Source: Agarophyton chilense (lineage: Eukaryota; Rhodophyta; Florideophyceae; Gracilariales; Gracilariaceae). Taken from it: a stretch of 64,000 nucleotides of DNA. Positions within the stretch are counted from its first letter, which is position 1. Each line of letters begins with the position of its first letter. A program made the position numbers and the translations under genes. The notes under the pieces were generated by a model that searched no databases, was not told the DNA's origin, and saw only the letters and a program-made list of their open reading frames with translations. Below are positions 8,814 through 49,615 of the stretch, in pieces. The stretch covers positions 1 to 64,000 of the forward strand of contig JARGXX010000026.1 in the NCBI GenBank assembly GCA_030374765.1, read 5' to 3'.

Positions 8814-9064
8814 AATTCTTCAAGATTGAACAGACAATAGTCTGCGGGCGCACTGGCAGGGCTTCCTATACCCGCGTCCCTAAAGGTCGGACCCCTGGCC
8901 CCCAGAGCTCTTCTGGTTAGATAACGGTTTTCTGCAGTCTACCTCCTCCCACGTCAAAAGGAGAAGGCGCGTTGCTCCTTACGAGGCTTCCAGAGGATGG
9001 TTAATGACCGAAGATATGCCTTCACCAAGTTGACCCTCTCTGGCCTCTTTCAAGAACTAGCGCG
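8814..9064 (-). promoter_or_regulatory. Putative structured leader RNA domain (A2)
   Basis: Family A version of the leader domain described at 12471-12732 and 38057-38307, lying between the primer-binding site and gag. It carries the shared GCCAGTGCGCCCGC core and the same stem-loop series as A5. Function is unknown; packaging, dimerisation or translation control are possible. Confidence 0.5.
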
Positions 9065-11481: not shown

Positions 11482-12155
11482 TGTTGAGGTTTGGTCGACT
11501 GTGCCCCCAAGCCCTTTGGAGTGTTGGAAATAGTGGAAAACAAAAAGTGGATTTAAGCATGGGCACTTTTGGGCACCCTCCGCGGAAAAACGCATATGCG
11601 CCTCATCTCAATCTCAACGTGAAACGGCCATCTGATTGGCTACTGCAAATGCCCTCATGCAACGTGGTATGGACAAGTGGTCTGGTTCTAATGGGGCGTG
11701 TTGGGGCTTCGGCCCAAGTGGAGCGATTTGATTGGACGAGAGCGCTGAATGAGCACGGGCTATGCAGTTGGAGAGAATGTGCGAATGTGGGCTGGATACG
11801 GGGTTTGGCCGTAACAGCCGAATCTGGGCTGCGCGGGGTGGTTGGCACTGGCGCACCACTTTGGATGATTTTTTTGAGTTTTTATTTGATATGCTTCATG
11901 TTTGAAATTGTTTTGGCGCGCAACTCCTCGTCGCACAGTGGCAAGGTGTGAGACGTGGGTGACCCGCCGACGGTCAGCACCGGCGGCGGAACTGCGTGCG
12001 AGGTAGATATAGTTTTCAATGACGGTCGCCAACGATCGAAGTAAATTGTCAAGGCTGACTACCTTCCTTTGTTTCTCTTCTTTTATTTTTCTCTTCTTCT
12101 CGTCTTTTCCCCCTCTTCTTCCTTTTCCTTTACCTAACCTGCGCTCACGTTGTGA
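11482..12155 (+). repeat. 5' LTR of B2 (674 bp)
   Basis: It starts TGTTGAGG and ends GTTGTGA. The position is fixed by the TCTGT target duplication on both sides of B2. It is the GGCGCGC-type variant, shared with the inner LTR at 20150. The last quarter holds a pyrimidine-rich stretch at about 12059-12131. No clear TATA box is seen. Confidence 0.95.
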
Positions 12156-12169
12156 GGTTATGGGCCCAG
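12156..12169 (+). promoter_or_regulatory. Primer-binding site of B2 (half tRNA-iMet type)
   Basis: GGTTATGGGCCCAG directly follows the LTR, identical over 14 nt to the site of family A, and complementary to the anticodon arm of initiator tRNA-Met. Beyond these 14 bases the two families diverge at once, which defines the paired region well. Confidence 0.82.
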
Positions 12170-12195
12170 AGCGTCGACTCTTCGCAGACGTCACG

Positions 12196-12302
12196 CTCTA
12201 CTAACATTTATTTGGATTCAAGAAGATTCCCTACTGCGACAGGTGCGCGATCTACGACTAACGCTCATCTGGATTCAAGAAGTTATTTTGTTTTGCGACA
12301 GG
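12196..12302 (+). repeat. Imperfect direct repeat in the B2 leader
   Basis: Two units with a period of about 57 bp. Each has an ACTAAC motif, TGGATTCAAGAAG (12213-12225 and 12270-12282) and GCGACAGG (12236-12243 and 12295-12302). The ACTAAC...CAGG arrangement resembles a branch point and acceptor, but no splicing is shown. The same repeat occurs in the B3 and B4 leaders. Confidence 0.65.
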
Positions 12303-12470
12303 CGTGTACCCTGCGGACTTCCTCCTTGGTGGCGAAAACATATCGCGTTTGTTAGTACCCCCTTGGCACGAGACCGGGAAGTCTGCCAAATCCTGCTCTC
12401 CGTCCGTAGAGTACGGAGGTCGATGAATTGGGCTTGGAAGTGTAGGAGCAACCGTACTACACCGCACGAC

Positions 12471-12732
12471 CGCGCTACTTTCCCGCAAGAGGCTAGCTTG
12501 GGTCAACTGGGGGAAGTGTATCTTGACGACACCCCTCCTTGGGACGCCTCGTAGGGACTAAAAGCGCCGGACTCTGAAGTGCGCAGAGTTCGGTAGGTAA
12601 TCAAAGCGTACCTCACCTGGAGAGAGTAACCAGGGTCCAGGGGATCATCCTTTAGGGTAGCGGAGGTAGTTTCTCCCGCCAGTGCGCCCGCCTACCTCGA
12701 GCAAGTCTCGGTAGGTTCAATCAAGAAGTTTC
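12471..12732 (+). promoter_or_regulatory. Putative structured leader RNA domain (B2)
   Basis: About 262 nt between the primer-binding site and gag that align with the family A leader although the proteins are far diverged. Shared blocks, in order: CGCGCTA, GGGTCAACT, TATCTT, GCCTCGTA, CCTTTAGGG, GCCAGTGCGCCCGC (12678-12691), GTTCAATC. Between them lie stems that pair in both families with different sequences. One example is the B stem GGACTCTG/CAGAGTTC, where A has CTTCTCC/GGAGGAG. Another is the B terminal stem CCTAC/GTAGG, where A has AGAC/GTCT. This indicates a conserved RNA fold. Its role is unknown. Confidence 0.6.
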
Positions 12733-13068
12733 AACCCGAAGTCGAGAAGTTTGTCTGTTCCGGGTACGCCTTCTGCCACTGCCCGTGAGTATACTCCAAG
12801 CGTGGGAGCACCCGAGCTCCGCTTGTGATCGCGTACGAGACGCGTCTCGGTGAGCGTTGCAGGCTACGTCAAAAGTCTCCGCTGTCGTCCTCGCTGTCGA
12901 ACGTTTGAGTTGGGATACTCCGTTCGGGCAAGCTCGGCCACGAATTCATCACTGCTTGTGGCCCTTTTCTTAAACTTCCCAAGGCATTGAGTCCCTCACT
13001 CTGCTTCCCTCTACTAATTAATTTCGTTTGGTTCCGTTCTATCTGCTTCGTGGATAACAGACTGAAAT

Positions 13069-16000
13069 ATGTCGGACACGGAAATGGAATCCGAAAGTAC
13101 TACCGGGATGAAAATCCCTCGTTTTCATGGAAGGCGTGGTGATGATTATGCCCTATGGCGCCATCGCCTTCGTGCTGCATGCCGTGTTAAAGGTGTGTGG
13201 AACGTTGTGGAATCCGATTCTGGATATTCAGCAACTACTGAAGCAACATCGGATACCGCTATTGATAGCGCTCGAGTTGTCGCCAAGCGCGAGAAGGCAT
13301 GTGGAATCATAATATGCGCCTTGGGTGATGCGCCACTTCGTGTGGTCATGGATGTCGACGACGACCCGGCGCGCATGCTCGCATTACTTGATGCACGGTA
13401 TGCGTCCAATCGTACTGTATCCAGAATTGCTGTGCAGACTCAACTATTCCGTATGGGATACAATGGTCAGAATATGTCAGGCTATGTGGACCAGTACACG
13501 GCGTTATTTGCTCAGTTAGAGCGCATGGGAAAGGATGCGGCAGTACCCGAGTCGCACAAAGCTCCCATGTTACTTGCTTCTATTGATCCCAATTGCACAC
13601 TGGAGTCTACTGCTGCAGCTCTTCGAACCAAGGATATCGCTGAGCTTACATGGGACTACGTGGCCACGACCCTCATAGATGAATACAACGCGAAACAGGT
13701 GTCTGCAAGGCCGTCTGGACGTAGTTCACGTCGCAAGAAGAAGGGCAGGAAAAAATCTGGTCGACATTCTGAATCGACTAATCGTACCCGCAGTAGTGCA
13801 AACAACGAAGATGAGGAGTCTGATGGTCACTCCGACATTGAGTCTACTGCTCGTGCACTTGCTGCCGCCTTGAGATCGTCATCATTTGATCGTTCTGGAT
13901 CGAGCAATGGACATCATTGCGACTTCTGTGATCGCGATGGACACACACAAGATCGTTGCTTTATGAATCCGGACAACCCGGACAACCACTTGCCGCAGAG
14001 TATCCTCGATAAACTGTCGCCACAACCCAAGCGAATGGGTGGCAGTAGTGGTAGAAGCGCCTCGAGCAAGTCTTCTGGAAAGTCTGGAAAAATCGAAATT
14101 GCTGGTGCAACTGTGGAAAGGACCACTATAGTTCCGCCGAATGACCTGAGTACCTACGCAGACAGCGGTGCGACAGTACATTGCTTCCATTCTGTTTGTG
14201 CGTTCGTGCCCGGTTCACTTGAACCTTGCGACGAAAGGACAGTGATGCTTGCCGATAACACATCTGTTGTATCTAAACAACGCGGAGAGGTGATCATTCC
14301 TTTGGACAATGCGAACATACGTCTGAGTGATGCCCTACTGACCCCCGCTCTGGGATACAACTTGGTTTCAACCGGGTGTTTGGCCGACAAAGGTATTGAG
14401 TCGCTCTTCGGTCGTCATAGTGTACGTTTGACGCTAGAGTCAAATGGTTTTGAGGTGGGCAATGGTGATCGTGACAAGGTATCTCGCATGTACACACTGC
14501 CTCAACCTTTAGGGCATGCTGGCGTGGAACTTGCGCTTTCGACAAAGTCTACGGAGACTCAACTGTGGCACCGACGACTGGCTCACATCAACCAACGTGA
14601 TCTGCAACATGTACACAAGTACGCAGATGGAGTGCCGCACTTGTGTGACATGGAGGAGGTATGCCGAGCATGTCGACTTGGCAAGGCTCATAAGCTTCCG
14701 TTCCCAGGTCACTTTGAACATGCATCCGCGGTTGGTGACATTGTGCACTCGGATATTGTAGGTCCTCTGGAAAAGTCTTTTCCGGACAAGTTTCAATATG
14801 CATGTACATTCCTCGATGATCACTCACGGTATGTGTTCCTAGGTCTGGTGATCCATCGCAGTGCTCTTAGTGATGTGTTTGTGGGTATTGCGGCAAAGTT
14901 TAAGCAGCTTGGAGGAGTGCATATCAAAAGTTTGCACTCGGACGGTGCAGAAGAATATATTGCCCTGCAAGAGAACTTGGCAGCAGAACATGGCCTCACT
15001 TCTTTCTCTGCTCCATACACCCCCGAACACAACGCTATAGCTGAGCGCATCAATCGTACCATGGTGGAAGCTGCTCGATCGTTGCTGATCCAAGCCGATC
15101 TACCAGAATGTTTGTGGCCATATGCGCTGAAACATGTTATCTTTGTGCGTAATCGAGTGCAACATTCTACTGTTAACAACAGTCCCTACTTTCTGGTAAC
15201 TGGAAATAAACCTTTGTTGAAGCACGTGCGTGTGTTTGGATGCACTGCATTCGTGCTAAGGACTCCGCGTGGACCCAAGTTCGAGTCTCGTGCACTTGAG
15301 GGAGTGTACTTGGAGACTCTTGAGCATGGTGTGTACAAGGTACTCGTCGTTGATAATGACGGTACTCCGCGTATTATTGAGTCACGACATGTTACTTTTG
15401 ATGAATCCAAGTTCCCTGGCGCATCATCTCTTGCCAACTACATGGATGATGAAAGTGCGTCAGATGCTGACTATAGCTCCGATATGGGATTATGTGATAG
15501 CATTGATGACGAATCGGATACCTTCTCCGTCGATAATGTTGAGGAGGAGGTGGTTCATGACGGATCCTCGCACCTGATTCCAGCACTCAGGCAGTCGGAG
15601 TCAGACTCCGGCAGCAATGAAGACGATGCACAGGATTCCGAAAGTGATGACGAAAGTGCTGCTGATGACCTTGATACATCTGCCAACGCTGATACGGAAC
15701 CACGCTACCCGCGGCGCACGCGCCGTCAACCTCTGAGGTGGTTCATGGCAGGGTCTGCTCACTGTACATCGCAAGTCAAAGTCACTACTAGTGATGAGCC
15801 CTCACTCAAGGAGGCAATGTCTGCCAGTGCGGAGGAGCGTACCATGTGGCAAGCAGCCGTAGATGAAGAGTTTTCATCATTGGAGTCGAAGCAAACTTGG
15901 AAACCTGATGACTCTCCTGCTTCACAACCACTACCAACTCACGTCATACTGAAGGTAAAGCGCAATGCTGATGGGTCAGTTGAACGTTTTAAGGCTCGTG

Positions 16001-17370
16001 TTGTAGCCGGTGGAAACCACCAAACATATGGTCAGGACTACATGGAGACTTATGCACCAGTTGTTTCGTTCTCTTTGGTTCGCATATTCTTGTATCTGAC
16101 GTTATGCTTGCGCATGTATGTGGTACAGGTGGATGTGAAGACTGCGTTTCTCAATGGCGAACTTGAGGAAGATGTGTGGATCATGTCACCTCGAGGTATA
16201 CCTGGCGTGACTTCACGATGCTTCAAATTGCTCAAGGCTATCTATGGACTGAAGCAAGCGCACTTGGCATGGCACAACAAACTATGCGAGGATATGAAAA
16301 GCATATGTTTTGAAGAGTTACCGAGTGCACCTTGCGTGTTTCGCCGCCAAAACGAGAGCAATGAGGATGCGTTCGTGCTAGTTTATGTGGATGACTTGCT
16401 AATATTCACAACTTCTGCCATGGAACGTGATGCGATTTTGGAGGAGCTTAAGTCGTTTTACGAGCTGCGTGTGGCGGACGAAGTGAACTTGTACCTCGGC
16501 GTTGAATTCAAATGGACTTTAGATTCAGATGGTCGACCTGTGTCGCTGTATCTTGGTCAGTCACTGTACACGGAAAGCGTGTTGCGCCGTTTCGGGTTTC
16601 AGCGATCCAAGCCGGCATGCACCCCTATGGTAGAATCTTTTTTTACCGGGTGGACATCTGAGAAAGACAAATCCATCCAGGATACTCAGCTGTACCAGCA
16701 GATCATTGGATCGCTTTTGTATTTGGCACTGAGAACTCGGTTGGATATATTAGCACCCGTCCTAATCTTGGCTCGTTTTCAGAAATCGCCCACGGCCTAC
16801 TGTCACAAGGCAGCAAAGCGGGTTCTTCGTTACCTTCGCGGTACAACTGAACATGGTGTGCACTATCACTCTGGCATGGTGAAACTGGAGGCGTACGTTG
16901 ACTCTGACTACGCTGCGGACACGCGTGATCGCAAGTCAATGTCTGGTTTCTTAGTGAAGCTTGGCAAAGCGACATGTATGTGGGGCGCAAGAAAACAGGC
17001 TTCGGTGGCGTTGTCTACCGGCGAGGCCGAGTATTATGCTTTGACGCTTGCGTGTCAGGAGGTCATTTGGTTGAAGCGTGTGCTTAAGGAGATTGGATGG
17101 AAAGTGCAAGGTGCTGTGCCCATTCGTTCGGACAACCAGTGCGCCATTGACTGGGCAACTGGTGAACGCTGTCCGTCGGGTCGCGCTAAGCACATTGACG
17201 TTAAGTTGCACTTCGTTCGGGAACTAGTCAAGGATTGTCACATCAATGTGACGTACGTTCCAAGTGAAGACAATGATGCGGACTTCTTAACTAAACCACT
17301 TGGCCCAGGTCTTCACAACAATAACGCGGACCGTGTTGGACTTGGCCGACCAGTCGAGGAGGAGTGTTGA
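13069..17370 (+). CDS. gag-pol: Gag-Pol polyprotein of B2 (1433 aa)
   Basis: An uninterrupted copia polyprotein. Gag starts MSDTEMESES and has the MKIPRFHGRRGDDYALW motif typical of copia capsid starts, then a basic stretch (RRKKKGRKKSGR near 219) and the zinc knuckle CDFCDRDGHTQDRC at 284-297. Next come protease DSGATVHC at 365, GAG-pre-integrase LWHRRLAH at 499, integrase D562, D625 and E659, an acidic Ser/Asp-rich linker of about 780-870, RT with YVDD at 1106-1109, and RNase H with VDSDYAAD at 1277. The ATG follows an open leader and opens the gag domain. The stop lies in the LTR: the final Cys and TGA are LTR bases 1-6, and EEE is the polypurine tract. It shares little sequence with family A beyond motifs. 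Confidence 0.95.
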   Translation: MSDTEMESESTTGMKIPRFHGRRGDDYALWRHRLRAACRVKGVWNVVESDSGYSATTEATSDTAIDSARVVAKREKACGIIICALGDAPLRVVMDVDDDPARMLALLDARYASNRTVSRIAVQTQLFRMGYNGQNMSGYVDQYTALFAQLERMGKDAAVPESHKAPMLLASIDPNCTLESTAAALRTKDIAELTWDYVATTLIDEYNAKQVSARPSGRSSRRKKKGRKKSGRHSESTNRTRSSANNEDEESDGHSDIESTARALAAALRSSSFDRSGSSNGHHCDFCDRDGHTQDRCFMNPDNPDNHLPQSILDKLSPQPKRMGGSSGRSASSKSSGKSGKIEIAGATVERTTIVPPNDLSTYADSGATVHCFHSVCAFVPGSLEPCDERTVMLADNTSVVSKQRGEVIIPLDNANIRLSDALLTPALGYNLVSTGCLADKGIESLFGRHSVRLTLESNGFEVGNGDRDKVSRMYTLPQPLGHAGVELALSTKSTETQLWHRRLAHINQRDLQHVHKYADGVPHLCDMEEVCRACRLGKAHKLPFPGHFEHASAVGDIVHSDIVGPLEKSFPDKFQYACTFLDDHSRYVFLGLVIHRSALSDVFVGIAAKFKQLGGVHIKSLHSDGAEEYIALQENLAAEHGLTSFSAPYTPEHNAIAERINRTMVEAARSLLIQADLPECLWPYALKHVIFVRNRVQHSTVNNSPYFLVTGNKPLLKHVRVFGCTAFVLRTPRGPKFESRALEGVYLETLEHGVYKVLVVDNDGTPRIIESRHVTFDESKFPGASSLANYMDDESASDADYSSDMGLCDSIDDESDTFSVDNVEEEVVHDGSSHLIPALRQSESDSGSNEDDAQDSESDDESAADDLDTSANADTEPRYPRRTRRQPLRWFMAGSAHCTSQVKVTTSDEPSLKEAMSASAEERTMWQAAVDEEFSSLESKQTWKPDDSPASQPLPTHVILKVKRNADGSVERFKARVVAGGNHQTYGQDYMETYAPVVSFSLVRIFLYLTLCLRMYVVQVDVKTAFLNGELEEDVWIMSPRGIPGVTSRCFKLLKAIYGLKQAHLAWHNKLCEDMKSICFEELPSAPCVFRRQNESNEDAFVLVYVDDLLIFTTSAMERDAILEELKSFYELRVADEVNLYLGVEFKWTLDSDGRPVSLYLGQSLYTESVLRRFGFQRSKPACTPMVESFFTGWTSEKDKSIQDTQLYQQIIGSLLYLALRTRLDILAPVLILARFQKSPTAYCHKAAKRVLRYLRGTTEHGVHYHSGMVKLEAYVDSDYAADTRDRKSMSGFLVKLGKATCMWGARKQASVALSTGEAEYYALTLACQEVIWLKRVLKEIGWKVQGAVPIRSDNQCAIDWATGERCPSGRAKHIDVKLHFVRELVKDCHINVTYVPSEDNDADFLTKPLGPGLHNNNADRVGLGRPVEEEC
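17356..17364 (+). promoter_or_regulatory. Polypurine tract of B2, inside the coding frame
   Basis: GAGGAGGAG abuts the LTR start TGTTGA and encodes the last three glutamates of pol, so the plus-strand primer site doubles as coding sequence. The same arrangement is at 2941-2949 and 26021-26029. Confidence 0.8.
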
Positions 17371-19327: not shown

Positions 19328-19589
19328 CGCGCTACTTTCCCGCAAGAGGCTAGCTTGGGTCAACTGGGGGAAGTGTATCTTGACGACACCCCTCCTTGGG
19401 ACGCCTCGTAGGGACTAAAAGCGCCGGACTCTGAAGTGCGCAGAGTTCGGTAGGTAATCAAAGCGTACCTCACCTGGAGAGAGTAACCAGGGTCCAGGGG
19501 ATCATCCTTTAGGGTAGCGGAGGTAGTTTCTCCCGCCAGTGCGCCCGCCTCCCTCGAGCAAGTCTCGGTAGGTTCAATCAAGAAGTTTC
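19328..19589 (+). promoter_or_regulatory. Putative structured leader RNA domain (B3)
   Basis: A third family B copy of the leader domain described at 12471-12732, with only scattered differences. All conserved blocks are present in the same order. Confidence 0.5.
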
Positions 19590-21137: not shown

Positions 21138-21399
21138 CGCGCTACTTTCCCGCAAGAGGCTAGCTTGGGTCAACTGGGGGAAGTGTATCTTGACGACACC
21201 CCTCCTTGGGACGCCTCGTAGGGACTAAAAGCGCCGGACTCTGAAGTGCGCAGAGTTCGGTAGGTAATCAAAGCGTACCTCACCTGGAGAGAGTAACCAG
21301 GGTCCAGGGGATCATCCTTTAGGGTAGCGGAGGTAGTTTCTCCCGCCAGTGCGCCCGCCTACCTCGAGCAAGTCTCGGTAGGTTCAATCAAGAAGTTTC
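21138..21399 (+). promoter_or_regulatory. Putative structured leader RNA domain (B4)
   Basis: Family B leader domain nearly identical to 12471-12732, with all conserved blocks, upstream of the gag start at 21736. Confidence 0.5.
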
Positions 21400-29691: not shown

Positions 29692-29942
29692 AATTCTTCA
29701 AGATTGAACAGACAATAGTCTGCGGGCGCACTGGCAGGGCTTCCTATACCCGCGTCCCTAAAGGTCGGACCCCTGGCCCCCAGAGCTCTTCTGGGTAGAT
29801 AACGGTTTTCTGCAGTCTACCTCCTCCCACGTCAAAAGGAGAAGGCGCGTTGCTCCTTACGAGGCTTCCAGAGGATGGTTAATGACCGAAGATATGCCTT
29901 CACCAAGTTGACCCTCTCTGGCCTCTTTCAAGAACTAGCGCG
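29692..29942 (-). promoter_or_regulatory. Putative structured leader RNA domain (A3)
   Basis: A 251 nt family A leader domain, the same length as in A2, A4 and A5, with all conserved blocks. Confidence 0.5.
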
Positions 29943-35638: not shown

Positions 35639-35889
35639 AATTCTTCAAGATTGAACAGACAATAGTCTGCGGGCGCACTGGCAGGGCTTCCTATACCCGC
35701 GTCCCTAAAGGTCGGACCCCTGGCCCCCAGAGCTCTTCTGGGTAGATAACGGTTTTCTGCAGTCTACCTCCTCCCACGTCAAAAGGAGAAGGCGCGTTGC
35801 TCCTTACGAGGCTTCCAGAGGATGGTTAATGACCGAAGATATGCCTTCACCAAGTTGACCCTCTCTGGCCTCTTTCAAGAACTAGCGCG
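35639..35889 (-). promoter_or_regulatory. Putative structured leader RNA domain (A4)
   Basis: 251 nt family A leader domain with all conserved blocks, as described for A5. Confidence 0.5.
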
Positions 35890-36521: not shown

Positions 36522-37218
36522 TGTTGGGTGTTGACCCTGTGCTGTCACTGAAAACCAAAAGTGCAGGGGAGCATGGGCTGTTTTGGAGGGTGCCTCTGGA
36601 AAAGCGCATATGCGTGTCAGTCGGATCTCAACGTGAACTCGGGCTGTGATTGGCTACTGCAAATGTGCACATGCAATGCGGTGTGTACAAGTGGTATGGC
36701 ACTATTGGGTTTGTCTGTGGTACACGTGTGTACGTGGTCTACTTGTACTACTGTGCACGCTGTTCAACATGTCCAGCTGGTGTACTATGAACACATCTCA
36801 CAAGGTGTAACGAATGTACTTGGAGAAGAGACGTGACATGTGTATTACAGGAGACTTGGTGTACTGTGCTGGAACGTGAATGTGTATGGAGGCGGATTGC
36901 AAGTAGTGTGTGCTGGCATATTGAATTTGTGCACACGTCAGTGTAATTATTGGCTGTGCACTTTGTGCACTGTATATTGCCTTGTTGTGCGCTGCAATGA
37001 ACATTGACTAGGGTTAATATCATGCTTGAATATGATTGGTAGTATTGAGTGTCCCTGCTTTGTAGTCTAGGGTTTACTTTGGGTTGGAGTCTAGACAGCT
37101 GACGTTTTGAAGTAGTATATAAGTGAAAGTTTGAGCGCCTCCAAGTAAATCCAAGCCAGAGCTGGCGAACTTCCTTTTCATTCCCTCAACCTTTCCTTCA
37201 GCATTTCCCTATCCAACA
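36522..37218 (+). repeat. 5' LTR of A5 (697 bp)
   Basis: It begins TGTTGGG and ends CCAACA, and abuts the truncated leader of A4. It shares some variants with the LTR at 30789 that the A5 3' LTR lacks, which suggests a different origin from its partner. Confidence 0.92.
37116..37123 (+). promoter_or_regulatory. TATA-like promoter element in the A5 5' LTR
   Basis: TATATAAG about 95 bp before the LTR end, in the position expected for the LTR promoter. The motif is kept in the other family A LTRs (TATAAAAG in the A5 3' LTR). Transcription would start within the following tens of bases. Confidence 0.5.
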
Positions 37219-37232
37219 GGTTATGGGCCCAG
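37219..37232 (+). promoter_or_regulatory. Primer-binding site of A5
   Basis: GGTTATGGGCCCAG immediately follows CCAACA of the LTR and pairs with CTGGGCCCATAACC of the initiator tRNA-Met anticodon arm. Confidence 0.82.
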
Positions 37233-38056
37233 CCCCGCTGACCTCTGCCGCATAGTTCGTCTCTCGCCGCTCTCCCGCACCGCCGTTCACCCGTTTCGCT
37301 GTTCTATTCTCTTCGTTTCCGCGCCGTTTCGTCGGGTGTGTGACCGTATCGAGGGTTGGTGTTGGTATTTTCTTTCGGTCTTGCGTTCCTCCCTGAGGGC
37401 GTTGTGGTGGTAGTGGTTGGACGTTATTATCGTGATTGTGGTTGGGTGCTCGTTGTTGCCCGTGTTTGTCGATCGCTATCCGTTTCGTTTGGTCTCCCTC
37501 TGTTTCGTTGTTTTGTGGATCCCTGCGTCGTGTTTGCGGGTTCTGATCTGAGAGGTTGAGGACCGTGTTTGTTGAAGTCTGGGCCTGGAGTTCTTGGCTC
37601 AGCGTTCGTGTGTGTTTGTGTGATTGGTCTGCATCTTTGCCTGTGCGACGAGCGGTTGATCCGAGGTACTTTGGGTGATTCCTTGTACTCGGGGACGTTA
37701 GCCTGGCGGCTTGAACCAAAGCAGGTGTACTGTCAAGCGGGTTCCCCACTGGTCCTTTTAGGGCGGATAACAGTGACGGTCGAAAGATCTGGTTGAACTT
37801 TGCGGGTGCATCTGTGGACGGGGTGCCGTGGCGCACTGCATTTGGCTGGTTGTTTGACTTTGTGTGTGAGCCCGACCTTTGTGGTTGGGCACTTGGACTG
37901 TTGTGAACAGCATCCATAAGGAGCTTTTGATCCGCAGTACGCGGGGAGGCGACGTTTCGAAGGCTGACCTCCTTTTCAGGATCAGGCCGCGTGCGATCTT
38001 CGTTGATTGCTCGTTAGAAGCGTATCTTGGTGTTGAAGTAGCTTCGGTTTCGAGGT

Positions 38057-38307
38057 CGCGCTAGTTCTTGAAAGAGGCCAGAGAGGGTCAACTTGGTGAA
38101 GGCATATCTTCGGTCATTAACCATCCTCTGGAAGCCTCGTAAGGAGCAACGCGCCTTCTCCTTTTGACGTGGGAGGAGGTAGACTGCAGAAAACCGTTAT
38201 CTACCCAGAAGAGCTCTGGGGGCCAGGGGTCCGACCTTTAGGGACGCGGGTATAGGAAGCCCTGCCAGTGCGCCCGCAGACTATTGTCTGTTCAATCTTG
38301 AAGAATT
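38057..38307 (+). promoter_or_regulatory. Putative structured leader RNA domain (A5)
   Basis: A 251 nt leader domain ending 107 nt before the gag ATG. Blocks shared with family B in the same order are CGCGCTA, GGGTCAACT, TATCTT, GCCTCGTA, CCTTTAGGG, GCCAGTGCGCCCGC (38264-38277) and GTTCAATC. Stems seen here: TGGT/ACCA enclosing GAAG/CTTC; CTTCTCC/GGAGGAG; GGTAGA/TCTACC; AGAC/GTCT. Family B has different but paired sequences at the same places. The fold is inferred by eye; its function is unknown. Confidence 0.6.
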
Positions 38308-38414
38308 ATTTGTTGTTTGTTGTTTTTTCTTTGTTGTTGCTGTCTGTTGTTGTTGTTCACTTGTCTGTTGCTGCCAAGCCATCTCTCTCGGCCTCTTGTG
38401 ACACTTTGCACAAC

Positions 38415-41400
38415 ATGGATTCGTTCAGTGGGGTGAAAATCGAAAAGCTGGTTGAGGATAACTTCCACGTATGGAAGCAGAAGATTGAGCTGCTGCTTGC
38501 ACTCAAGGACCTCGACGGCCACCTCGACTCTGTTAGACCCACTGACGAAGATGAGCTGTCGACTTGGAAAAAGAAAGATGCCAAGGCCAGAGCTATTATT
38601 GGTCTCACACTCAGTGATGAGCATTTAGATCATGTGCGGGACGCCGACAACGCTGCCGATATGTGGAAAGCCATTTGCGATGTGTTCCAACGCAAGACTC
38701 TGCTCAACAAAATCAACGCCCGACGGTCCTTCTACTCTGCCAAGATGCGTGATGATGAGAAAATGCTACAGTTCATCAACCGTGTACGTCATCTGGCATC
38801 GGACCTGAAGTGTATGGACGTTGTTGTTGAGGAGGAGGACATCGCTATGGCCATTCTATGCGGACTTCCGGAAAGATTCGAGCACCTCATCGTGGCAATT
38901 GATACCACGATTGGCGATCGTCAACTCACTCTAGAGTTTGTGAAGAGTCGTCTGCTGCAAGAAGAGCAGCGAATGAACGATCGTGCCAAGGAGGATCCTG
39001 GTGGAAGTGAGGCAGCTTTGGTTGGCAGGCAGTCGCGATGGAAGAACATTGGGTGTCATTATTGTCATAAGAAGGGTCATATCCAGAGGAACTGTTTCAA
39101 GAAGCAACGTGATGGGGCTAACAGGAATCAGGTCGATGCTGCTCACCCAACTGTCTATACTGAGCTCAGCGATGAGCGAGGTACGGGTGGCAACGACTCT
39201 GACTTTGTATGTCTCATTGCTACTGGCTCTGATAAAGCCACGAACAGTGACTGGATTGTTGACTCTGGTGCTACTGCCCACATGACTTTCGACGAATCCA
39301 TGTTCCAAACATATGATAGTAAGGTGTCTTCTGGCGTTAGCATCGGTAATGATTCCAAACTAGAGTCTGTTGGTCACGGTAGTGTGGAGCTTGATCTGAT
39401 TGTGGAAGGGTCCAAACGAAAGTGCCAGCTGAAGCAAGTTGTTCATGTACCGAATTTAAGGTACCATTTGCTTTCTGTATCGGCGATTTGTGATGTGGGG
39501 TGCAAAGTAGTGTTTGAAAAAGAGAAGGTATGTGTATACAAGGGGTCAAAAGTGGTTGCCTTGGGGCGCCGCGTCAAAGGCCTATACTACCTTTGCACTG
39601 CTGCACACCAGTGTACAGATGTAAACAGCGCACTTGTGTCGGACTTGTCACTATGGCATGCTCGAATGGCTCATGTGAATGTGGATGGTATCAAGCATAT
39701 GGCTCGAAACAAGGTTGTGTCAGGGCTCAATGTAGACGTTGCGCAGGATTCAGATGTGTGTGGCTCATGTGTAGTAGGAAAAGCAACCCGTGCTCCGACT
39801 CCCAAGCAAGGGGGGAAACGAGCAAAACACGTACTGGAACTTGTTCACTCCGATGTGTCAGGTCCAGTAAGTGTGAAATCCTTGGGAGGCTCGCACTACT
39901 TCGTCACATTCATCGATGATCACAGTCGTTTCTGCTTCTTCTACATGCTCAAAACTAAGGATGAGGTGTTCCAGATGTTCCTAAGGTGGCTCAAGTTTGT
40001 TCAAAACCAAACTGGCAGACAAGTGAAAACCATCACCGCACGTGAGAGTGTGCTCAAAGCATTGCGCACTGACAACGGTGGTGAATATCTGTCACATCGT
40101 TTTACCAAAGAACTTGAACGTCACGGTATTGAGCATCAGCGAACTGTGCCTTACAATCCTCAGCAGAATGGACTTGCCGAACGGTTCAACCGCACACTCA
40201 TGGACTTGGTCAGATCGATGTTATGTCACAAGAAATTGCCAAAGCACTTTTGGGCTGAGGCACTGAATGTTGCAGTGTATGTGCGCAACCGTGTGACTTG
40301 CAAAGCTCTTCCAAGTAGTGTGACACCATATGAACTGTGGCACGGTCAGAAGCCTGATGTGAGCAACCTGCGTGTGTTTGGGAGCCGATGCTGGTACAAG
40401 GTTGTGGATCATAAGCTGAAGAAGCTAGAGGAGCGTGGTGTGGAAGCTATCTTTATTGGGTACACCCCAGGGTCTCACGGATACAAGTTGTGGGACTCTG
40501 AAAAGAAAAAGGTGATTGTGTCAAGAGATGTACGGTTTGATGAGTTTTCGGGCTCAGACAACCAGTTTAGCTATGAGGAAGAGGACTACGCAGACATTGA
40601 CTTTAGTAATATGTCTAGTCCACATGATACCTCTACATCTGACACATCTAGTGGACCCAGCGATGATGACCCTTCTGCGCCTTTGCCTGACTCCGATGAT
40701 GCTTCTGACAGCTCTGTTGATGATTCCGCAGCTGATACACCAGTTGAGCCTGTAGTGCATGAGACACAACCTGTTCGTAGGTCCACGCGTGAACGTAGAA
40801 AGCCGAGCTCATGGTGGCGTGCAACTGCTCTACTCACTGCCAGTGATGACACCCCGTCGTCATATGATGATGCTGTGTCACGTACTGATTCCGAAGCATG
40901 GAAGAAGGCAATGAAGAGTGAGTACCAGTCACTGATTGAGCATGACACATGGGACTTAGTGCCAAGGCCAGCAGACAGCAACGTGATTTCGTCCAAGTGG
41001 GTGTATGTGCAGAAGTATGAAGCAACACCATCTGGTGAACCAACTATCAGGTACAAGGCTCGTATGGTGGCTAGAGGATTCCTGCAGATCGAGGGTGTTG
41101 ACTTTTCTGAAACATATGCACCTGTTGTTAAGTTTACCTCGATCAGGATGATTCTGTCAGTGACTGCTGTACGAGACCTTCATTTGCATCAGATGGATGT
41201 GAAAACAGCTTTTCTGAACGGTGACCTTGAGGAGACAGTGTACATGGAGCAGCCAACAGGTTTTGTGCAGCAAGGTAACGAGGATCTGGTGTGTCGTTTG
41301 AAGAAAGCCATCTATGGGCTACGACAGGCACCCAGACAGTGGCATGCAAAGATATACTCGTTCCTTGTTGAGGAGATGCAGTTGACGCCAAATGACGCAG

Positions 41401-42440
41401 ATGAGTGTGTGTACAGCGGAAAGATACTGGGATTTGTTGTTCTAATTGCTCTATACGTTGATGACTTGCTTATTGCAAGTCCGAGCATGAAGACAATGGA
41501 TCGTGTAAAGGCAGAGCTGTCGTCTCGGTTCCACATGAAAGACCTCTATCAAGCTTGCATGGTACTCGGATTCGAGATCCACCGTGACAGAGTTATGCGA
41601 GAGTTGTATCTGACTCAGTCTGCGTACACACAAAAGGTCTTGGAACGTTTTGGCATGCACCAGTCCAAACCAGTTGACACTCCAATGGAAGTTGGCATGG
41701 ACCTGTCTGCGATTCAGGATGTACTCAGGGAGGTGCCGTACCGTCAGGCAATTGGCTGTCTCATGTATTTGTCTGTAGGAACTCGTCCAGATATCTCATA
41801 CGCGGTGTCCAAACTTGCCAAGTATGTTGAGAAACCTGGAGAGATTCACTGGAAGGCAGTCAAACGTGTGCTTCGCTATCTCAACGGTACTTGTACATTT
41901 GGTCTCACCTACGGCTTAAACACCGATTTGGCACTTCACGGCTACGTGGACTCTGACTGGGCAGGCGATGTTGCAAACCGCAAGTCTACCAGTGGGTACT
42001 TGTTCATGATGGCTGGAGGTCCTGTGTCATGGTGTTCACGTCAGCAAGAAGTGGTTGCACTGTCTAGTGCTGAAGCTGAGTATGTGAGTCTGTGCAGTGG
42101 TTCCAAAGAGGCCATCTGGCTTAGGCGTTTGTGGAATGGCATCGGCATAGTCATTGGAGTAGAAGTGGACGATTCGGTAAAGTTGCTTGTTGAACCAACG
42201 CCTGTATATGTTGACAACCAAGGGTGCATTGACCTTGCCCGAAATGGCGTTGTCAACAAGCGTACCAAGCATATCGACATTCGTTTTCACTTTACTCGAG
42301 AAGCTCTACGTGACAAGTCGATTGTGTTGTTCTACTGCCCTACCGATTGCATGACTGCCGATATGCTCAACAAACCACTTTGCCGTGTGAAGCACGAGAG
42401 GTTCCGTGAAGACAGTGGCGTCCGACACCTAGACCTTTGA
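38415..42440 (+). CDS. gag-pol: Gag-Pol polyprotein of A5 (1341 aa)
   Basis: Uninterrupted copia polyprotein. Gag opens MDSFSGVKIEKL. Further on are zinc knuckle CHYCHKKGHIQRNC at 214-227, protease WIVDSGATAHM with D283, GAG-pre-integrase LWHARMAHVN at 413, and integrase with HSDVSG D480, TDNGGEY D553 and AERFNRT E589 (spacing D-x35-E). They are followed by an acidic Ser/Asp-rich linker, RT from WKKAMKSEY at 829 with YVDD at 1014-1017, and RNase H with VDSDWAGD near 1177 and SSAEAEY near 1219. The stop precedes the polypurine tract by ten bases. A GTG-initiated extension of 49 codons exists but is leader sequence. It belongs to the same subfamily as A2-A4. Confidence 0.95.
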   Translation: MDSFSGVKIEKLVEDNFHVWKQKIELLLALKDLDGHLDSVRPTDEDELSTWKKKDAKARAIIGLTLSDEHLDHVRDADNAADMWKAICDVFQRKTLLNKINARRSFYSAKMRDDEKMLQFINRVRHLASDLKCMDVVVEEEDIAMAILCGLPERFEHLIVAIDTTIGDRQLTLEFVKSRLLQEEQRMNDRAKEDPGGSEAALVGRQSRWKNIGCHYCHKKGHIQRNCFKKQRDGANRNQVDAAHPTVYTELSDERGTGGNDSDFVCLIATGSDKATNSDWIVDSGATAHMTFDESMFQTYDSKVSSGVSIGNDSKLESVGHGSVELDLIVEGSKRKCQLKQVVHVPNLRYHLLSVSAICDVGCKVVFEKEKVCVYKGSKVVALGRRVKGLYYLCTAAHQCTDVNSALVSDLSLWHARMAHVNVDGIKHMARNKVVSGLNVDVAQDSDVCGSCVVGKATRAPTPKQGGKRAKHVLELVHSDVSGPVSVKSLGGSHYFVTFIDDHSRFCFFYMLKTKDEVFQMFLRWLKFVQNQTGRQVKTITARESVLKALRTDNGGEYLSHRFTKELERHGIEHQRTVPYNPQQNGLAERFNRTLMDLVRSMLCHKKLPKHFWAEALNVAVYVRNRVTCKALPSSVTPYELWHGQKPDVSNLRVFGSRCWYKVVDHKLKKLEERGVEAIFIGYTPGSHGYKLWDSEKKKVIVSRDVRFDEFSGSDNQFSYEEEDYADIDFSNMSSPHDTSTSDTSSGPSDDDPSAPLPDSDDASDSSVDDSAADTPVEPVVHETQPVRRSTRERRKPSSWWRATALLTASDDTPSSYDDAVSRTDSEAWKKAMKSEYQSLIEHDTWDLVPRPADSNVISSKWVYVQKYEATPSGEPTIRYKARMVARGFLQIEGVDFSETYAPVVKFTSIRMILSVTAVRDLHLHQMDVKTAFLNGDLEETVYMEQPTGFVQQGNEDLVCRLKKAIYGLRQAPRQWHAKIYSFLVEEMQLTPNDADECVYSGKILGFVVLIALYVDDLLIASPSMKTMDRVKAELSSRFHMKDLYQACMVLGFEIHRDRVMRELYLTQSAYTQKVLERFGMHQSKPVDTPMEVGMDLSAIQDVLREVPYRQAIGCLMYLSVGTRPDISYAVSKLAKYVEKPGEIHWKAVKRVLRYLNGTCTFGLTYGLNTDLALHGYVDSDWAGDVANRKSTSGYLFMMAGGPVSWCSRQQEVVALSSAEAEYVSLCSGSKEAIWLRRLWNGIGIVIGVEVDDSVKLLVEPTPVYVDNQGCIDLARNGVVNKRTKHIDIRFHFTREALRDKSIVLFYCPTDCMTADMLNKPLCRVKHERFREDSGVRHLDL

Positions 42441-42460: not shown

Positions 42461-43157
42461 TGTTGGCTGTTGACCCTGTGCTGTCACTGAAAACCAAAAG
42501 TGCAGGGGAGCATGGGCTGTTTTGGAGGGTGCCTCTGGAAAAGCGCATATGCGTGTCAGTCGGATCTCAACGTGAACTCGGGCTGTGATTGGCTACTGCA
42601 AATGTGCACATGCAATGGGGTGTGTACAAGTGGTATGGCACTATTGGGTTTGTCTGTGGTACACGTGTGTACGTGGTCTACTTGTACTACTGTGCACGCT
42701 GTTCAACCTGTCCAGCTGGTGTACTATGAACACATCTCACAAGGTGTAACGAATGTACTTGGAGAAGAGACGTGACATGTGTATTACAGAAGACTTGGTG
42801 TACTGTGCTGGAACGTGAATGTGTATGGAGGCGGATTGCAAGTAGTGTGTGCTGGCATATTGAATTTGTGCACACGTCAGTGTAATTATTGGCTGTGCAC
42901 TGTGTGCACTGTATATTGCCTTGTTGTGCGCTGCAATGAACATTGACTAGGGTTAATGTCATGCTTGAATATGATTGGTAGTATTGAGTGTCCCTGCTTT
43001 GTAGTCTAGGGTTTACTTTGGGTTGGAGTCTAGACAACTGACGTTTTGAAGTAGTATAAAAGTGAAAGTTTGAGCGCCTCCAAGTAAATCCAAGCCAGAG
43101 CTGGCGAACTTCCTTTTCATTCCCTCAACCTTTCCTTCAGCTTTTCCCTTTCCATCA
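42461..43157 (+). repeat. 3' LTR of A5 (697 bp)
   Basis: It starts TGTTGGC and ends CCATCA. The next bases, GGGTGATTG, belong to an unrelated minus-strand open frame, so this is the right edge of the whole A/B complex. Confidence 0.92.
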
Positions 43158-43609
43158 GGGTGATTGTAAAACACGCATTGTAGACCCGAAACGCTATCGT
43201 CCCCACTAGTGAATAAAGGGAAAGCGTCCGCATCACTTTGTCCTGATGTTTGGTAGTTATCGCTTGCAACGGTGTATGAAGAACGCAGTTTTGACCAGCG
43301 TTTCTTTATCGTTGTGCCATTCCGAACGTGTGGATGGAGAGATGGGTCAAACTGAACCAAGAGGTCTTCTGTGACTCTGATATTCCACTGAAGACTGTAG
43401 AGGTCTCGGTGCAGTGGGTATCCACATAAATAGCCGCGGAGAGCAGGTGTCACCTTGCGAGCGACGGTTCTTTGATAAGAAGGGAGTGTGCGAAAAGCAG
43501 CCAGGTGTACCTGAACAATGGGGATAATACGTGTATTCACGAGGCAGTTGTCCAGATGCGGCAGTACGTAATTCACACGAGATTGGCTGGACAACCCTTC
43601 TGACAACAA
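43158..43609 (-). CDS. Open frame interrupted by A5, possible Myb/SANT-like protein
   Basis: About 150 codons on the minus strand run from near 43609 into the A5 LTR, so the C-terminus is displaced. No ATG is seen at the 5' limit, so the start or an upstream exon is unknown. The segment TTIKKRWSKLRSSYTVASDN followed by SGQ, an acidic-aromatic stretch and a Tyr resembles the helix region of Myb/SANT-like DNA-binding proteins linked to transposons in algae and oomycetes. That similarity is from memory and weak. It is the only candidate host or transposon gene directly at the edge of the complex. Confidence 0.3.
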
Positions 43610-46158: not shown

Positions 46159-48043
46159 ATGATGAACTATCTCAAGAAGAAAAACTACTGGAACGTCGTG
46201 ATTGGAAGTGAAGAAAACTCGACAGCAAACGAAAAAGCTTTAATAGATATCAGCCTTTCCGTTGATGATAGTCAAATTGTCTATGTTTAATCTGCCACTA
46301 ATGGAACAGAAGCTTGGAATGCATTGTCAGAAGCTTATGAAAACAAAGAAATGGCATAAAAATGGACTTAGAAGACAAATTTATTTCATAGAGACTAAAT
46401 AAGGGAGATTCAGCAAAACAACACATTGAAGATCTGAAGCGTTTAAAAACCAGATTGCACCATCTTGGAGTTCAAAAACCGGAAGAAGAGTATGTTATGC
46501 GTCTACTACGAAGTTTGCCCAAATCGTATGAAAGTTTGGTAGTAACATTGGAAAACATGGCAGAAAAATTTAGTATCGAAGAAGATCAACTCCAGAATTC
46601 TACGAGAGGAGTCCAGAAAAAATTTGTCTTCAGAGAATGAAAAATGTGGAAACCTGTTACAGGAAAAATCGAACAAACGGAAAACACCATTATTGTCAGA
46701 AGAAAGGACGTAAAATAGCAGACAGCAGACTTCGAAAAAGGAACAATCATAGTTCAGAAAATCATTCTTCATCGAGTAATCAGCAGAATGAAAGGATGGA
46801 AAATTCGAACAGAAATTCATCACATTTTCTAATGGCCGAACAGAAAGTAGAAAAATTATCCGGAACTTGGTATATGGACTCTGGGGCATCACTTCACATG
46901 ACGAATGACGAAAAATGGTTTATGGAAGGAACTGTCAAGAATATCAACTCTGAAAGTATACGACTTGGAAATGGATCAAGTGTATTCTCCCACAAAAAAG
47001 AAGATATATGGATGGAAATTTTTATTCATGGAAAGAAGAGCACTACTTCAGTTCATGATGTGCTTTTTGTTCCTGAAATCGCAATGAATATTATATCTAT
47101 TGGACAAATTGACGAACGTGGTCACTCAGTGTAATTCAAAAATGGATGGTGCCGGGTATTTTTAAAAGAAACAAATGAAACACTGCTTCAAGAAAAGACA
47201 GAAAATTCAACATACAGTTTCAGAAGCCACCAGAAAATCATTTGTTTATTTTATGATAAGCAAAGATGAAGTCACAGCAAAAATTACGGATTTCATGACA
47301 ATGATCTAGAAACAAACAGACCCGTCTGTGAAACAGATTCGAAGCGATAGAGGTGGTGAGTATATTTCTGAAAAACTACAGACATTTTTAAAGAAGAAAA
47401 GAATTATTCAATAGCTAACAGCAGCTCATGAGCCACAACAAAATGGAATTGCCGAGGGATTAATCGAAGACTATATGAAAAAGCTCGATGCATGCTGTAC
47501 TATCAAGATTTACCTAAAGTATTTTGGGAAGAGGCATTTCAAACTGCAATTGCGTTAAGGAAATTTATGCCAACGAAAATTCTGAGAGACATGAGTCTTT
47601 TTGAAAAATGGTCTCGAAGAAAACCAAGCATTTCTCATTTTCGTGTCTTTGGATGCAAAGCGTTTGTTTTTATTACAAAAGACAAGAGAAGGAAATAGGA
47701 TCCAAAAGCCAAATAATGTACTTTTCTCGGATATGAAGGAAATAACTACCGATTCATGGATGATAAGAAAAAGAAACTCTTCGTGAGTGCGAACGCTAAA
47801 TTTCAAGAAATACCGGATACAAGGAATTTTGAGATTGAAGTAAGAACGAAAAACGATATTCAGAATCAGGAAGAAACGCACCCAATACTATCAGAAAATA
47901 TTCAAGAGCAACATGAAGTTCACGAAGACAATGAAGAAAATATTGACGAAGTTCCCAGACATTCAAAAAGAATCAGAAAACAGTCTACATCGCTAACTTA
48001 CGAACATGCTGATGAAAATGAGGAAACTTGACAAGGAGCTGTA

Positions 48044-49615
48044 ATGATGCTGGCTAATGAGACAGAACTAAAAACATACAATGATGCAATCATAGTACCG
48101 GCTAAAAACAATTGGAAGAGTGCAATGGAAATAGAAATGACTTCTTTACAAGGAAACCAAACATGGAAACTGGTTCAAGTCTCACCGGAAATGAGAATAC
48201 TTTCTCCAAGATGGGTATATAAAGTCAAGCCAAAGAGTGGAAATCTAGACAGAATATTCAAAGCTCTGCTGGTATGCAGAAGGTATCAACAAAAATACGG
48301 GCCTGAGTATTTCGATACATATGCATCTGTTATGAGAATGGCATCTCTTCGGACCATGCTGGCAGTTGCATTTCAAAGCCAAATGCACATATGCCAAATG
48401 GATGTAAAGACTGCCTTCTTTAATGGAATAATTGAGGAAGAACTCTTCATGTACCAACCTGAAGGTTATATTGATACAAAAAATCCAACCCATGTATGCA
48501 AACTTGAGAAATCAATTTATGGACTGAAACAGGCACCAAGAGCATGGTACACGGTAATTAGCAAAGTGTTGGACACCATGAACTTTAAAAGATCCCATAC
48601 CGACAATGAAATCTTTATCGGACATATTCACATCAACATTATCTATATTGCACTATATGTAGATGATTTGGTAATGGCATGCTGTGATAAGGATATTCTG
48701 GATATGGTTAAAAATCAACTTAGCTCGACATTCAAAATGAAAGACCTAGGAAAAAATCGTCATGTTTTGGGAATTGAAATCGATTACAGCCGAGAGAAAG
48801 GACATATGAAACTTGCACAATCATATTATGCGAGAACGATTTTAAATCGATTCAATATTGAGTCGTGCAAAGAATTTAATACGCCAATGGAAGCAAATAT
48901 AATTCTTCGAAAGAAAGATAAGAAGGAAATGAATATTGAAAACATCCCGTACAAAGAACTTATCGGCTCCTTTATGTACTTGATGCTGGGAACAAGACCA
49001 GACTTGGCTTATGCTATTGGGGTACTCAGCCAGTTTTCTGGAAATCATTCGATGGAGCATTGGAAAGCCTGCATACGAATGTTGAGGTATGTCCAGAAGA
49101 AAAAGGATTCCTTCTCGCTCTATACAAGAGATGATACACCCAAAGTAACATTGTACAGTGATGCAAGTTGGGGAAATACAGAAGAACGAAAATCTATCTC
49201 TGGATTTGGGACTTACTATGGAAAATGACTTCTATCATGGAGCAGCAAAAAGCAGAATACTGTTGCTCTGTCATGCACTGAAGCCAAACTAATGGCTCTA
49301 TCTGCCACTGTGAAAGAAGGACAATGGATTTCAAAATTATTGTATGACTTGACATCTGAAATCATCACCCCTTTCAAAATCTTTGTTTACAATCAGTCTT
49401 CGATTGCCATATCTAAAAACCAAGACAGTCGTGGGAAGACCAAACATATATCTATAAGATAATTCTATATTCATGAATGCTTGAAGAATGGAGAGCTGGT
49501 TCTTGATTACTGTCGAACACAAGATATGGCAGCTGATATTTTCACGAAGTCACTAAACATAATCAAGCACTGGAATTTCGTGAATATGCTTGGGTTAAGG
49601 CAGTTATCAAGTTGA
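48044..49615 (+). pseudogene. pol: RT and RNase H region of relic C
   Basis: The best kept part of C. RT has WKSAMEIEM at the start, [22 protein letters not shown], and the active-site LYVDDLVMACC near 48653. RNase H begins near 49140 (YSDASWG) and continues in a weaker form to about 49615. It is a fossil with a few breaks in this part. Confidence 0.85.

What the first reader, a model, noticed from the sequence alone, without database searches (positions are those of the whole stretch)
12471..12732. A structured leader RNA shared by two divergent copia families
The 5' leaders of families A (38057-38307) and B (12471-12732) align over about 250 nt although the Gag-Pol proteins share little beyond motifs. 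Conserved blocks occur in the same order (CGCGCTA, GGGTCAACT, TATCTT, GCCTCGTA, CCTTTAGGG, GCCAGTGCGCCCGC, GTTCAATC). Between them, stems pair in both families with different sequences: TGGT/ACCA versus GGGG/CCCC; CTTCTCC/GGAGGAG versus GGACTCTG/CAGAGTTC; GGTAGA/TCTACC versus AGGTA/TACCT; AGAC/GTCT versus CCTAC/GTAGG. Such compensating change is the mark of a selected RNA fold. It lies between the primer-binding site and gag, so packaging, dimerisation, Gag binding, ribosome recruitment or a ribozyme are candidate roles. It is present in all seven leaders in the window.
Basis: partly seen in the sequence, partly recalled or inferred. Interest (0 to 1): 0.78.

Follow-up and report, generated by a model that had tools for sequence, protein, structure and literature searches.

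The report
Conserved folded RNA in copia leaders
Two very different jumping genes, probably of an alga, carry the same folded RNA module ahead of their first gene; it most likely marks their RNA for packaging and copying, and it matches no catalogued RNA family.

Summary
Family A (38057-38307) and B (12471-12732) leaders align over about 250 nt in all seven window copies, although Gag-Pol is 33% identical. A and B fold independently into the same architecture: 44 of 72 pairs shared within two columns, against 8.2±8.0 in controls (0 of 500). In a structure-guided comparison 17 of 70 pairs changed on both sides and stayed paired, 6 were lost. A second contrast within the A clade kept 11 of 12 touched pairs. 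B-clade copies add no support. No Rfam family matches.

New facts constrain function. The leader from primer-binding site to gag is nearly stripped of ATGs (A 0 vs 12.3 expected; B 1 vs 6.4), so ribosomes probably scan through it, against an IRES. Two other copia families of this genome use the same primer site but have 39- and 47-nt leaders without the element, so it is not needed for priming. A and B also share a U3 block and interleaved genomic clusters, yet lie on well-separated RT branches: old module exchange or very deep descent. Best reading: a sense-strand cis-signal for genomic RNA selection; function untested.

The parts
12471..12732 (+). Family B leader element, copy 1 (the finding)
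19328..19588 (+). Family B leader element, copy 2
21138..21398 (+). Family B leader element, copy 3
   Evidence: identical to copy 1
38057..38307 (+). Family A leader element, copy 1
35640..35889 (-). Family A leader element, copy 2
29693..29942 (-). Family A leader element, copy 3
8815..9064 (-). Family A leader element, copy 4
12471..12476 (+). B, stem P1 5' strand (CGCGCT), pairs with 12681-12686; closes the multibranch domain
12681..12686 (+). B, stem P1 3' strand (AGTGCG) inside the conserved 14-nt block
12503..12508 (+). B, conserved six-nt bulge TCAACT between P4 and P5
   Evidence: sequence
12690..12716 (+). B, hairpin P11 outside P1 (two of six homologous pairs covary with A)
38088..38093 (+). 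A, conserved six-nt bulge TCAACT between P4 and P5
   Evidence: sequence
38267..38272 (+). A, stem P1 3' strand, pairs with 38057-38062
12156..12169 (+). B primer-binding site, 14 nt complementary to the initiator-Met tRNA (anticodon-loop side); contains an ATG
37219..37233 (+). A primer-binding site, 15 nt complementary to the initiator-Met tRNA
12170..13068 (+). B leader from primer-binding site to gag: 1 ATG in 899 nt, 6.4 expected
37234..38414 (+). A leader from primer-binding site to gag: 0 ATG in 1181 nt, 12.3 expected
11536..11695 (+). B U3 block shared with A (72.5% over 160 nt)
36550..36709 (+). A U3 block shared with B
13069..17370 (+). B Gag-Pol ORF, 1433 aa, copia domain order
38415..42440 (+). 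A Gag-Pol ORF from its first ATG, 1341 aa, copia domain order

Best explanation
The element is a plus-sense cis-acting RNA domain of about 250 nt in the 5' leader of the genomic RNA of two copia lineages. A long-range stem (P1) closes a multibranch core of arms P2-P10. A separate hairpin (P11) and a conserved single-stranded GTTCAATC tail follow. The most likely role is selection of the genomic RNA for the particle: recognition by Gag, and dimerisation or folding for packaging. Ribosomes reach gag by scanning through it. SHOWN: location, conserved fold by comparison, compensating change, ATG depletion, absence from two other copia families with the same primer site. INFERRED: that the region is transcribed as a leader, that ribosomes scan it, that Gag or a partner binds it, and packaging as the step served.
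For: Position between primer-binding site and gag. Separately computed minimum-energy folds of A and B share 44 of 72 pairs within 2 columns, null 8.2±8.0, 0 of 500; with no column tolerance 14, null 2.6±3.6, 4 of 500. Structure-guided comparison of 70 pairs: 44 same, 3 changed on one side, 17 on both, 6 lost; null 9.1±2.0 double changes, 0 of 5000. On a sequence-only alignment of 13 leaders 79.0% of cells pair, against 43.5-52.7% in slid versions; covariation score 0.276 against 0.091-0.147. Differences shared by at least 6 of 8 A-like leaders touch 12 pairs of A and keep 11. In A 12 of the 70 pairs are G-U on this strand and would be A-C on the other. Two families with the same primer site have 39 and 47 nt between it and gag and no match to the element model, so the element does something beyond priming. 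ATG depletion points to scanning. All four Gags examined carry a CCHC knuckle. Ty1 packaging signals lie within 580 nt of the RNA 5' end (PMC4974528, passages). BARE2 RNA is packaged in BARE1 particles, which its authors call consistent with conserved dimerisation and packaging signals (PMC3735527, passages).
Against: No binding, packaging or probing data exist. The folds are no more stable than dinucleotide shuffles, nor is B more stable than its column-shuffled controls (193 of 500 as low). Among 11 B-clade copies changed pairs are kept no better than under re-pairing (0.359 vs 0.351, 640 of 2000), and the element is no more conserved there than its flanks. In the 13-row count two of five measures do not exceed the shuffles (268 and 484 of 500 as high). 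A and B Gags are very different, which is awkward for a Gag-specific signal. Families D and E lack the element, so copia packaging in this host does not require it.
Confidence: 0.5

Rival explanations
1. The element is read by a host factor rather than by Gag: nuclear export, RNA stability or translation enhancement of an unusually long leader, which would explain why two families with very different Gags share it in one host.
For: A and B Gag-Pol are 32.8% identical and lie on branches separated at 100/100 in the RT tree, yet they share the element, a U3 block and genomic clusters. The two long-leader families have it; the short-leader families D and E do not.
Against: No Rfam family matches. 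No host factor is identified. Packaging signals can also be shared between families.
Confidence: 0.25
2. It is an internal ribosome entry site or shunt structure that lets ribosomes bypass a long leader.
For: Long structured leader ahead of gag; gag lies 107 (A) and 336 nt (B) downstream of the element.
Against: The leader is ATG-free or nearly so, upstream of the element too in A (0 in 823 nt, 8.8 expected): A in all 0 of 12.3 expected (0 of 1000 shuffles as low), B 1 of 6.4 (2 of 1000), while the first 500 nt of the LTRs are not depleted. Entry downstream would relax selection against upstream ATGs. In B alone the upstream part is not significantly depleted (1 vs 3.0, 138 of 1000). No Rfam IRES match.
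Confidence: 0.07
3. It is a primer-positioning device: conserved blocks pair with the D arm of the initiator tRNA next to the primer-binding site, like the extra tRNA boxes of Ty1.
For: The primer-binding site is a 14-15 nt perfect complement of initiator tRNA. CGCGCTAGTT (10 nt, A) and CCAGTGCGC (9 nt, A and B) can pair with tRNA positions 15-28, counting G-U.
Against: Runs as long (10-11 nt) occur elsewhere in the A leader. In the eight A-like relatives the T at position 6 of the 5' block is A, which breaks this pairing and the last pair of P1 alike. Two families with the same primer site lack the element. The blocks can already pair with each other in P1.
Confidence: 0.08
4. The similarity is only sequence homology left by exchange of the 5' region between the families; the shared fold is incidental.
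For: A 160-nt U3 block is shared as well (72.5%), so LTR and leader may have moved together. B-clade leaders are conserved along the stretch read, not only in the element.
Against: Controls that keep the identical columns do not reproduce the shared fold. 17 pairs changed on both sides and stayed paired. BLASTN of A against B aligned no leader sequence outside the element.
Confidence: 0.06
5. It is a ribozyme of an uncatalogued class.
For: Multibranch core with strongly conserved short blocks.
Against: No Rfam ribozyme match. Self-cleavage between primer-binding site and gag would separate the primer site from the coding RNA, which makes no sense for a genomic RNA (inference).
Confidence: 0.03

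Closest known systems
[quoted passage not shown]
   Same: A structured 5' region of a copia-type genomic RNA near the primer-binding site; Gag footprints and packaging determinants reported there (PMC4974528, passages; PMC5454406, title and abstract start in a listing).
   Different: Ty1's primer site lies in gag, with a pseudoknot and tRNA boxes. Here the domain is untranslated and begins 315 (B) and 838 nt (A) after the start of the primer site, with no demonstrated tRNA boxes. No direct comparison with Ty1 sequence was made.
Retroviral packaging signals (psi)
   Same: Position between primer-binding site and gag; multi-stem RNA (recalled).
   Different: No Gag binding, dimer or packaging data here; hosts and elements unrelated.
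BARE1/BARE2 pair of barley copia elements
   Same: Two families thought to share packaging and dimerisation signals (PMC3735527, passages).
   Different: BARE2 lacks its own Gag and is parasitic; A and B here both have full Gag-Pol ORFs.
ECR-1 and ECR-2, centromeric LTR elements of the brown alga Ectocarpus; CoLT of Phytophthora sojae
   Same: Families clustered in a few blocks; ECR-1 and ECR-2 share a short cis region (about 64 bp at the polypurine tract) (PMC11541908, passages; PMC7082073, passages and section 9).
   Different: ECR-1 is Gypsy-type with a chromodomain; the Pfam scan listed none in A or B. What A and B share is a U3 block and a leader RNA. Centromere identity is not shown here.

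Membership tests
Ty1/copia LTR retrotransposons (host elements A and B) | Integrase ahead of reverse transcriptase in one Gag-Pol | tested here: met
   Pfam order gag, gag_pre-integrs, rve, RVT_2 in A and B
Ty1/copia LTR retrotransposons (host elements A and B) | Initiator-Met tRNA primer site just inside the 5' LTR | tested here: met
   14-15 nt perfect complement to the genome's own initiator-Met tRNA gene, abutting the LTR. Half-tRNA use as in Drosophila copia is by analogy (PMC5371799, passage)
Known RNA families (Rfam 15) | Match at gathering score, or a plausible match up to E 5 | tested here: not met
   Window 0 matches at gathering score; B leader 0 up to E 5; A leader 3 weak matches, all minus strand and far below cut-off
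Retroviral-type packaging signal | Lies in the leader between primer-binding site and gag | tested here: met
Retroviral-type packaging signal | Binds Gag, directs packaging or dimerisation | not testable with these tools
   Needs biochemistry or a marked-element assay
Ty1-type tRNA boxes | Conserved leader blocks complementary to tRNA arms | tested here: inconclusive
   9-10 nt complementarity exists but runs as long occur elsewhere in the leader; one position broken in A-like relatives
Ty1 5' pseudoknot | Long-range pseudoknot | not tested
   Only nested folds were examined
Internal ribosome entry site | Upstream ATGs tolerated ahead of the entry point (recalled criterion) | tested here: not met
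   A: no ATG in 823 nt upstream of the element, 8.8 expected (0 of 1000); B upstream part alone 1 vs 3.0, not significant

The most novel reading that the evidence does not exclude
U3 block plus leader RNA form an exchangeable cis-cassette: two distantly related copia lineages in one alga run on the same promoter module and the same folded RNA tag, are handled by one machinery (cross-packaging or a shared host factor), and for that reason fill the same centromere-like clusters, while copia families without the cassette are dispersed.
Probability: 0.15. Interest if true: 0.8.

Novelty: new variant of a known kind. Interest (0 to 1): 0.5.

Why it matters
Packaging determinants are not precisely defined even for the yeast Ty elements (PMC4974528 passages). 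None of the papers listed by searches for a conserved copia leader structure reports one in its title or abstract start (others listed of 1, 16 and 137 found; open-access library only). A natural two-family comparison with 17 compensating pairs gives a structural model ready to probe. The same genome offers built-in controls: copia families with the same primer site and no element. If the cassette reading is right, it would show how distantly related retrotransposons come to share RNA-handling signals and a genomic niche.

Tried and rejected
IRES: rejected as leading idea after the ATG count. tRNA boxes: complementarity runs not longer than others in the leader. Known RNA: Rfam negative. Recent recombination: not supported by divergence. 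A third lineage with the element: patterns meant to pass over A and B gave none; among loci L001-L068 only A- and B-type leaders reached E 1, and the 5 matches, read only in the listing, look B-type. Relatives elsewhere: viral contigs gave none; five bacterial pattern matches in genome contigs were taken as chance and not examined. Contigs behind the full-length relatives of A (up to 77%) and B (up to 64%) could not be read as DNA here. The RVT_2 fragment at 48044-49228 was used only in the RT tree and a protein search. L009 and L013-L015 carry the 14-mer but align poorly to the element and were dropped. Left out of the pair counts: near-identical copies and the partial L095. Misses: L072 and L087 of 20 gag-upstream stretches, L101, L104 and L107 of 20, none rescued. 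The D/E list has three second hits on the same element, and membership of E was checked for L109, L111 and L112 only.

Full report
What is there. The window lies in a 79.8-Mb genome of 135 contigs and holds nested copies of two copia-type families. Family A has LTRs that match over 699 nt (36522-37220 and 42461-43159, 98.4%); family B LTRs begin at 11482 and 17365 (100% over 674 nt). Both Gag-Pol ORFs have the copia domain order. Each 5' LTR is followed at once by GGTTATGGGCCCAG(C), a perfect complement of the genome's own initiator-Met tRNA gene. The element begins 838 nt after the start of the primer site in A and 315 nt in B, and ends 107 and 336 nt before gag.

Is the similarity real? Yes. 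BLASTN gives 62-63% over 226 nt with E about 1e-6 between A and B. Gag-Pol is identical at 418 of 1276 aligned residues, 32.8%. The 14-nt block with one more base has 298 matches with at most one mismatch in the genome, against 3 for the reversed pattern. Upstream of 20 gags chosen from 150 listed Pfam gag matches the element was found in 18; one of the two misses, L087, is a copy of family D. Upstream of 20 divergent B-type gags chosen from 150 listed it was found in 17, one of them partial. BLASTN of A against B aligns no other leader sequence, but it does align a U3 block of 160 nt at 72.5% (E 9e-28).

Is it a selected fold? Four tests support it; other results do not. (1) The minimum-energy folds of A and B, computed separately, share 44 of 72 pairs within two columns. 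Shuffling only the variable positions of B gives 8.2±8.0, none of 500 as high; with no column tolerance the figures are 14 against 2.6±3.6, 4 of 500. (2) In a structure-guided comparison of 70 pairs, 44 are unchanged, 3 changed on one side, 17 on both, 6 are lost. Dealing the changed 3' letters anew gives 9.1±2.0 double changes and 14.6±2.2 losses, none of 5000 as good. This comparison was guided by the structure and leans towards it. (3) On a sequence-only alignment of 13 leaders, in which stem P6 is out of register, 79.0% of cells pair against 43.5-52.7% in slid versions; covariation score 0.276 against 0.091-0.147. (4) Eight A-like leaders (L085, L010, L012, L119, L124-L127) have 27 differences from A shared by at least six of them. 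These touch 12 pairs and keep 11, one through a double change in P11, while slid partners keep 22 of 37. Against: stability is ordinary (z -1.36 and -0.14). Changed pairs in 11 B-clade copies are kept no better than under re-pairing (0.359 vs 0.351, 640 of 2000); none of these copies is followed by a full-length open frame (L011 is the gag match at C92:992253), so decay after insertion may explain it. Nine A-type copies do better (0.583 vs 0.514±0.024, 18 of 2000). Two of five measures do not beat their shuffles. Within the B clade the element is no more conserved than its flanks. Within the A clade it is somewhat more so in L010 and L012 (84% and 87% against 78% and 79% upstream), not in L085 (81% against 82%).

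Anatomy. P1 pairs the 5' block CGCGCT with AGTGCG in the 14-nt block and encloses everything except P11. Inside lie the long arm P2-P3-P4-P5 with a conserved TCAACT bulge, then hairpins P6, P7, P8, P9 (CCAGGGG...CCTTTAGG) and P10. Outside lie P11 and the GTTCAATC tail. In A 12 of the 70 pairs are G-U in this orientation, so the active strand is probably the transcript sense.

Function. ATG is missing from the whole A leader (0 in 1181 nt, 12.3±2.7 in dinucleotide shuffles, 0 of 1000) and nearly so from B (1 in 899 nt, 6.4±2.1, 2 of 1000). In the first 500 nt of each LTR it is not depleted. Among the control trinucleotides AGT was also low in A (9 against 20.1, 1 of 1000), so not all of the A deficit need be due to translation; in B no control over the whole leader was as low. 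The pattern is expected if ribosomes scan the entire leader. The one unavoidable ATG is in the primer site, opening an ORF of 10 codons in A and 14 in B. A related copy with a frameshifted gag (L119) has 7 ATGs between primer site and gag. Two further copia families, D (L118) and E (L109, L111, L112), use the same primer site but reach the gag ATG 39 and 47 nt after it and show no match to the element model up to E 10. The element is therefore an addition to, not a requirement of, copia replication and priming in this host. I take genomic RNA selection (packaging, dimerisation) as most likely, from position, Gag zinc knuckles and the Ty1 and BARE precedents. A host-factor role is the main rival.

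Origin. In an RT tree of 62 sequences A groups with red-algal (Chondrus) and plant elements and B with a separate lineage, split at 100/100; the tree is rooted only at its midpoint and has long branches. Sharing of U3 and leader across that split means either old exchange of the 5' region or very deep descent with losses. A and B copies are interleaved: 133 of 144 A positions have a B copy within 50 kb and 122 of 150 B positions an A copy, against 0 of 12 for D and 1 of 17 for other copia positions (5 of 17 within 100 kb) (the lists are the best-scored matches, not all copies). Such clusters resemble the transposon-rich centromeres of P. sojae and Ectocarpus, but centromere identity is not shown.

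Host. The genome encodes a RuBisCO large subunit whose best solved relative is 8bdb; that this and the next chains are of the red type is recalled. An alga with a red-lineage plastid is inferred; the species is unknown.

Verdict. A real structured RNA in two copia lineages that matches no Rfam family, with a well-supported fold from essentially two contrasts, a narrowed but untested function, and interesting evidence of cis-module sharing. None of the papers listed by my searches reports such a structure in what I saw: titles and abstract starts of the listings, and passages of the papers cited, in an open-access library only.

Noticed in passing
36550-36709 and 11536-11695: A and B LTRs share a 160-nt U3 block (72.5%, E 9e-28), including an ATTGG and a TGCAAAT stretch, although Gag-Pol is only 33% identical; perhaps shared promoter elements.
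   Followed up: partly
12160-12204 and 37223-37255: The primer-binding site itself contains an ATG (complement of the tRNA anticodon) that opens a short upstream ORF of 14 codons in B and 10 in A.
   Followed up: partly
12423-12554: A second upstream ATG in B opens a 43-codon ORF that ends inside the element; its context was found in 9 of 20 B-type loci searched by a strict string match.
   Followed up: partly
whole window; other contigs such as C2, C6, C21, C108: A and B positions form interleaved clusters; stretches within 25 kb of the listed copies make up about 6% of the genome, while 12 copies of family D lie elsewhere. Centromere-like pattern.
   Followed up: partly
L106 and L105 (B-type leaders): Leaders are 91-93% identical to B while the adjoining gag is only 62-73% identical in protein: gag diverges far faster than the 5' region, or 5' regions are exchanged.
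   Followed up: no
L095 (G000:C94:29130-29860): What looks like an A-type LTR end is joined directly to the 3' half of a B leader element; probably a nested insertion or solo LTR, possibly an A/B recombinant.
   Followed up: no
46637-49228 and 59577-61085: Remnants of at least one further copia element (RVT_2 domain at 48044-49228).
   Followed up: partly
G000 contig C39, L128: RuBisCO large-subunit gene, best solved relative 8bdb at 1054 bits: the host is probably an alga with a red-lineage plastid.
   Followed up: partly
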